DNA of 64,000 bases from Alphaproteobacteria bacterium. Lineage in GTDB: Bacteria; Pseudomonadota; Alphaproteobacteria; Micavibrionales; Micavibrionaceae. Shown piece by piece: positions 5,170 to 5,334 of this stretch; the stretch's first letter is position 1; every line of letters starts with the position of its first letter. The position numbers and the translations under genes were made by a program. The notes under the pieces were generated by a model. The model saw only the letters and a program-made list of their open reading frames with translations, did no database searches and was not told the DNA's origin. The stretch spans positions 1 through 64,000 of the forward strand of contig JANQFU010000046.1 of assembly GCA_028277665.1 (NCBI GenBank). The letters run 5' to 3'.

Positions 5170-5305
5170 TTTTCTCCTGTGTTTCAGATTGTGTACGGGC
5201 GTTAAACCCTTGCTACCATTCAAACGGTAGAAGAACAGTACCGGCGGGAGACCAAGATGACGACGGTCGTTGAGACCACATTGCGAACGGTTGCCCGCCG
5301 GTATC
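5170..5305 (-). ncRNA. Candidate IS110 bridge RNA in the element's leader
   Basis: Between the transposase start and the left end, the minus strand folds strongly. A perfect 10-bp stem, TACCGGCGGG with CCCGCCGGTA, closes a loop of about 45 nt; it is followed by the hairpin CTACC-GGTAG and by GGG-TTTAAC-GCCC. The loop carries GGTCTC twice and the 8-mer AATGTGGT, which recurs outside the stem at 5315-5322. Known IS110 bridge RNAs lie here and have internal loops that pair with donor and target DNA. The role is inferred from position and fold. Confidence 0.6.
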
Positions 5306-5334
5306 TCTGTTTATACCACATTTCAAACACACAA

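What the first reader, a model, noticed from the sequence alone, without database searches (positions are those of the whole stretch)
5170..5325. IS110 leader with a long closing stem and an 8-nt word shared with its own flank
Seen: a perfect 10-bp stem (TACCGGCGGG / CCCGCCGGTA) encloses a 45-nt loop, and two more hairpins lie closer to the transposase. The loop contains AATGTGGT, and the same word stands outside the stem at 5315-5322. Known: IS110-group leaders encode a bridge RNA whose loops pair with donor and target DNA. Inferred: this is such an RNA, the repeated word is part of a guide and its DNA partner, and the element may still be programmable. The double GGTCTC in the loop is also odd.
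Basis: partly seen in the sequence, partly recalled or inferred. Interest (0 to 1): 0.75.

Follow-up and report, generated by a model that had tools for sequence, protein, structure and literature searches.

The report
IS110 bridge RNA aimed at genomic repeats
This is the guide ("bridge") RNA of an ordinary IS110-type jumping gene; its guides match the ends of a palindromic repeat scattered through the host genome and the element's own ends, and its one unusual trait is that it lacks the 5' hairpin its relatives have.

Summary
The claimed guide is wrong. AATGTGGT at 5315-5322 lies inside the element, overlapping an extended -10 (TGGTATAAA); an 8-nt direct repeat occurs in 16% of shuffled leaders, so chance suffices. 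The real guides come from an agnostic scan plus homologues: core AT; LTG UUCGCAAU with left flank CTCGCAAT; RTG GUCGUCAU with right flank ATGGCGG; LDG AUGGUAG with right end ATGGTAG; RDG ACACAAU with left end ATTGTGT. The score is 27 of 28, against a best of 25.5 in 40 shuffles. Homologues carry different guides that follow their own flanks (permutation P = 2.5e-5 for LTG), and their closing stems differ in sequence but stay paired. The target is a palindromic repeat end: CCTCGCAATGAC occurs 14 times in this genome (reversed control 0), and repeat copies match the left flank at 99-100% up to the core. Targeting such repeats is known for IS621, ISPpu10 and ISPa11. One variant trait: this element and its nearest relative (62%) lack the 5' stem-loop that all eight more distant relatives examined have. 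New member of a known kind; modest interest.

The parts
5334..5442 (-). Left flank (target side, LT): copy of a palindromic genomic repeat, ending ...GGCTTCCTCGCA-AT at the insertion core
   Evidence: 99-100% identical to repeat copies L021, L026 and L024, and those alignments stop exactly at the core; 14 copies of CCTCGCAATGAC in the genome, reversed control 0
5334..5335 (-). Left copy of the core dinucleotide AT
   Evidence: best placement of the agnostic flank/guide scan, 27 of 28 against a shuffle maximum of 25.5
5166..5333 (-). Left non-coding end (LE), starting TGTGTGTTTG
5310..5318 (-).
   Evidence: sequence; a -10-like element stands about 20 nt from the core in several homologues. The sigma-70 scan found no full promoter in the integrated form
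5294..5303 (-). 5' arm of the target-binding-loop (TBL) closing stem
   Evidence: the stem is kept with different sequences in 8 homologues
5239..5248 (-). 3' arm of the TBL closing stem
   Evidence: as for the 5' arm
5280..5287 (-). Left target guide (LTG) UUCGCAAU, core included
   Evidence: 7 identities plus one wobble with LT CTCGCAAT; LTG-LT permutation P = 2.5e-5 over 10 elements
5265..5277 (-). TBL apical stem-loop GGUC-UCAAC-GACC (contains the first GGTCTC)
   Evidence: fold; a similar apical stem is visible in homologues
5257..5264 (-). Right target guide (RTG) GUCGUCAU
   Evidence: pairs with ATGGCGG (5 Watson-Crick pairs plus 2 G-U wobbles) and better with the repeat consensus ATGACGG; RTG-RT permutation P = 0.02
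5213..5219 (-). Left donor guide (LDG) AUGGUAG
   Evidence: 7 of 7 with the right end ATGGTAG; same in L006; co-varies in L017, L039, L045
5188..5194 (-). Right donor guide (RDG) ACACAAU
   Evidence: 7 of 7 complementary to the left end ATTGTGT; AGACAAU or AAACAAU with ATTGTCT or ATTGTTT in homologues
4227..5165 (-). IS110 transposase/recombinase, 312 aa, intact
   Evidence: Pfam PF01548 (9.5e-24) and PF02371 (8.1e-16); IS621 and ISCro4 chains in the PDB (7.6e-24, 6e-24), DEDD and Ser residues aligned
4217..4226 (-). Short right end (RE) AACATGGTAG, containing the left donor (LD) ATGGTAG
   Evidence: L006 shares AAACATGGTAGATG
4215..4216 (-). Right copy of the core dinucleotide AT
4206..4214 (-). 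Right target flank GGCGGAAAA
   Evidence: 8 of 9 identical to GACGGAAAA, which follows the same repeat end in uninterrupted copies

Best explanation
The leader is the bridge RNA gene of an IS110-group insertion sequence (about 1.12 kb, 4217-5333 minus strand, AT core on both sides). Inferred mechanism, by homology with IS621: the excised circle joins the right and left ends across the AT core; an RNA of roughly 125-140 nt starts at or near 5303; its first loop (LTG UUCGCAAU, RTG GUCGUCAU) pairs with both strands of the target TCGCA-AT-GAC, the end of a dispersed palindromic repeat; its second loop (LDG AUGGUAG, RDG ACACAAU) pairs with the element's own joined ends ATGGTAG-AT-TGTGT; the DEDD/Ser recombinase then exchanges strands at AT. 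Shown here: protein family and catalytic residues, element ends, guide matches, guide-flank covariation across homologues, stem covariation, and the repeat nature of the target. Inferred: transcription, circle formation, present activity. A lineage trait: the RNA lacks the 5' stem-loop of other IS110 bridge RNAs and would begin at the target-binding stem.
For: Pfam and PDB matches. An agnostic scan over all left and right core placements ranks the AT/AT solution first at 27 of 28, with a maximum of 25.5 in 40 shuffled leaders; the same scan gives 28 of 28 in L017 and L045. LTG equals LT in L017 (CUCGCGAU), L019 (CUCGCAAU), L045 (GCGGGGAU) and L068 (GCCGACAU), four distinct words; permutation P = 2.5e-5, and RTG P = 0.02. 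Closing-stem arms differ in all nine elements compared but positions 1-9 stay paired in every one, with changes on both sides. Repeat copies match the left flank up to exactly the core, and the target word occurs 14 times in the genome.
Against: Single copy in this genome and no close relative with an empty site, so the right boundary rests on homology to L006 and guide matching. The right flank has two G-U wobbles with RTG, and the repeat's right arm does not continue beyond about 9 nt. L006 and L018 fit their own LTG poorly (3 and 1.5 of 6). The LDG does not pair with the core. For homologues the scan ranked best without a known answer only in some cases (L017, L039, L045 and L006 yes, the last at 26 and inside its own shuffle range; L003, L018, L019 and L020 no); their guides were then read by hand from the alignment.
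Confidence: 0.94

Rival explanations
1. The repeated AATGTGGT is the guide and its DNA partner.
For: The word is present twice, once in the target-binding loop.
Against: An 8-nt direct repeat is found in 15.9% of shuffles. The outer copy is 13-20 nt inside the element, not next to the core. L006 lacks it while sharing the donor guides. The agnostic scan prefers UUCGCAAU with CTCGCAAT. A promoter explains the outer copy.
Confidence: 0.03
2. The leader is only a folded 5' untranslated region that regulates the transposase (or a read-through blocker), not a guide RNA.
For: A strong fold close to the start codon.
Against: Guide-flank covariation across homologues and donor guides that match both ends are not predicted by a plain regulatory leader. 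A regulatory role in addition is not excluded.
Confidence: 0.03
3. The element is a dead relic whose RNA no longer works: the missing 5' stem-loop is decay rather than a stable variant.
For: Single copy; the only close relative, L006, has a broken transposase (stop and frameshift).
Against: The transposase is intact with all five catalytic residues. Closing stem, LTG, LDG and RDG are all intact. The stem-loop is cleanly absent in both L006 and the window element, with stem-start spacing 31 and 32 nt, so its loss predates their split at 62% protein identity. Deleting the IS621 5' stem-loop only slightly lowers recombination (PMC11208158).
Confidence: 0.25

Closest known systems
IS621 and its bridge RNA (IS110 group, E. 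coli; PMC11208160, PMC11208158)
   Same: DEDD/Ser recombinase, bridge RNA in the left end, target loop before donor loop, guides overlapping a core dinucleotide, short right end, target in REP-type palindromes
   Different: Core AT rather than CT; target TCGCAATGAC; no 5' stem-loop; LDG does not include the core; only about 27% protein identity by eye from the alignment (not computed)
ISEc21 and other IS110-type elements with seekRNA (PMC11187229)
   Same: Guide RNA from the non-coding region upstream of tnp, with target matches on both strands
   Different: Different target and larger transposase (358 aa against 312 aa)
ISPpu10 and ISPa11 (REP-targeting IS110/IS1111 elements, cited in PMC11187229 and PMC11208160)
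   Same: Occupy dispersed palindromic repeats
   Different: Other host, repeat and guides; ISPa11 is IS1111 type, with the RNA downstream of tnp

Membership tests
[quoted passage not shown]
   both above the curated cut-offs
IS110 family (IS110 group) | Catalytic D, E, D, D and Ser of IS621 conserved | tested here: met
   D10, E56, D98, D101, S239 by alignment
IS110 family (IS110 group) | Long non-coding end upstream of tnp, short right end (rather than IS1111 type) | tested here: met
   LE 168 nt, RE 10 nt
IS110 family (IS110 group) | No long subterminal inverted repeats (these mark IS1111) | tested here: inconclusive
   none seen by eye and the RE is only 10 nt; not searched formally
Bridge RNA | Two internal loops whose guides match target and donor around a shared core | tested here: met
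Bridge RNA | Guides co-vary with the flanks across relatives | tested here: met
   LTG P = 2.5e-5, RTG P = 0.02
Bridge RNA | 5' stem-loop before the target loop (IS621 consensus; conserved but not essential) | tested here: not met
   absent in the window element and L006 (-1.4 and 0 kcal/mol), present in all 8 other relatives (-19 to -44 kcal/mol); PMC11208158 reports only slight loss of recombination when it is deleted
Bridge RNA | Transcribed and bound by the recombinase | not testable with these tools
   needs RNA sequencing and a binding assay
Bridge RNA | Match to a curated RNA family model | tested here: inconclusive
   no Rfam match in this leader at gathering thresholds; whether Rfam 15 holds a bridge RNA family was not checked

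The most novel reading that the evidence does not exclude
A lineage of IS110 elements has naturally dispensed with the 5' stem-loop, so that a compact bridge RNA of about 125-140 nt starts directly at the target-binding stem and still works, with an AT core and a 312-aa recombinase.
Probability: 0.5. Interest if true: 0.45.

Novelty: new member of a known kind. Interest (0 to 1): 0.33.

Why it matters
It is a clear natural case of a bridge RNA whose guide is tuned to a host's own dispersed palindromic repeats, read from sequence alone with a permutation test. In the same genome a second AT-core IS110 (L003) carries CGGAGG in its loop and stands next to GAGG-AT, matching the end of a different repeat family with 39 copies, which suggests that elements share out repeat families by guide. 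The missing 5' stem-loop makes this a natural test of whether a minimal bridge RNA suffices, which is of interest for compact programmable recombinases.

Tried and rejected
AATGTGGT as a guide: rejected (chance level; inside the left end). Sigma-70 scan of the integrated leader: no full promoter, consistent with but not proof of a promoter completed only at the circle junction. Empty site in relatives: the flanking gene at 5664-6281 has no match in 38 relatives. More relatives of the compact type: DNA search of 142 genomes of the order gives only L006 above chance level; profile search of 385 genomes of the class gave more distant members only. Genome contigs and viral-contig scans gave nothing useful. 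The weak Neisseria DNA hit to the donor loop is not an IS110: there is no related transposase beside it. MAFFT alignments A3 and A4 of the target loop put stem arms out of register, and the L039 5' arm was typed wrongly in them; no count rests on them (the stem counts use arms placed by hand from the genomic sequence). No covariance model was built.

Full report
Observation. The leader folds much better than shuffles (z = -3.45), and a perfect 10-bp stem is a 1.1% event in shuffles. The repeated AATGTGGT is not remarkable: 15.9% of shuffled leaders contain some repeated 8-mer. The gene is on the minus strand, 5165-4227.

Protein. The 312-aa product has the two IS110 domains and matches IS621 and ISCro4 recombinases of known structure. 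The catalytic residues of IS621 named in PMC11208158 (D11, E60, D102, D105, S241) correspond to D10, E56, D98, D101 and S239 here. The gene is intact and single copy at DNA level, with two more distant IS110 proteins in the same genome.

Finding the ends and guides. I scored every pair of left and right core positions for simultaneous matches of four guides in the leader. For this element the best placement is core AT at 5335-5334 and 4216-4215, 27 of 28; shuffled leaders reached at most 25.5 in 40 trials. LTG UUCGCAAU matches LT CTCGCAAT (one wobble), RTG GUCGUCAU pairs with ATGGCGG (two wobbles), LDG AUGGUAG matches ATGGTAG, and RDG ACACAAU pairs with ATTGTGT. The left boundary is confirmed independently: repeat copies elsewhere in the genome are 99-100% identical to the left flank and stop matching exactly at the core.

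Homologues. Relatives at 38-62% identity share the AT core and the order target loop then donor loop. Where the left flank is readable, the LTG follows it: CUCGCGAU/CTCGCGAT (L017), CUCGCAAU/CTCGCAAT (L019), GCGGGGAU/GCGGGGAT (L045), GCCGACAU/GCCGACAT (L068), CGGGAU/CGGGAT (L020, flank cut by the contig end). Own pairs beat swapped pairs with P = 2.5e-5 for LTG and 0.02 for RTG. L068 changes the RTG and its target together (GCGGAU with ATCCGC). Not all fit: L006 scores 3 of 6 and L018 1.5 of 6. The closing stem has a different sequence in each of nine elements but positions 1-9 pair in all of them.

Target. CCTCGCAATGAC occurs 14 times in the genome (reversed control 0), each time as the end of a palindromic repeat of 100 bp or more. 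The flank right of the element, GGCGGAAAA, resembles GACGGAAAA at the same place in uninterrupted copies, but the similarity ends after 9 nt and another repeat begins about 16-18 nt from the core. L019, in another family of the class, sits at the same kind of repeat end. L006 sits at the end of a different repeat (TCGGGAT). IS110 elements in palindromic repeats are well known: IS621 in E. coli REP, ISPpu10, ISPa11 (PMC11208160, PMC11187229).

5' stem-loop. In eight relatives a hairpin of -19 to -44 kcal/mol lies between the left end and the target-binding stem, 63-92 nt from the core. In the window element and L006 that interval is 32 and 31 nt and has no hairpin. In the window element it holds an extended -10 (TGGTATAAA), so the RNA would start at or near the stem (inference). 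PMC11208158 calls the stem-loops structurally conserved among orthologues and reports that deletion slightly lowers recombination. I could not check figures or all catalogued elements for other natural losses.

Verdict. The element is a new member of a known kind with one variant trait.

Noticed in passing
L003 (own genome, contig C83): A second AT-core IS110 in the same genome has CGGAGG in its target loop and GAGG-AT as left flank (contig end). CGGAGGATGAC ends another repeat family with 39 copies in the genome (reversed control 1).
   Followed up: partly
window 4085-4197 (minus strand): A copy (82-83% identical) of a second palindromic repeat family stands directly right of the element, so the element lies between two repeat families.
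   Followed up: partly
L006 (genome G057): Closest relative (62%): transposase broken by a stop and a frameshift, inserted at the end of a different repeat (TCGGGAT), LTG only partly matching.
   Followed up: partly
L017 (transposase): The residue aligned with the catalytic serine of IS621 reads Thr (DTGK), although guides and flanks match perfectly.
   Followed up: no
window 37171-37329 (-), 3238-3332 (-), 49988-50061 (-): 6S RNA, small SRP RNA and a tRNA (Rfam).
   Followed up: no
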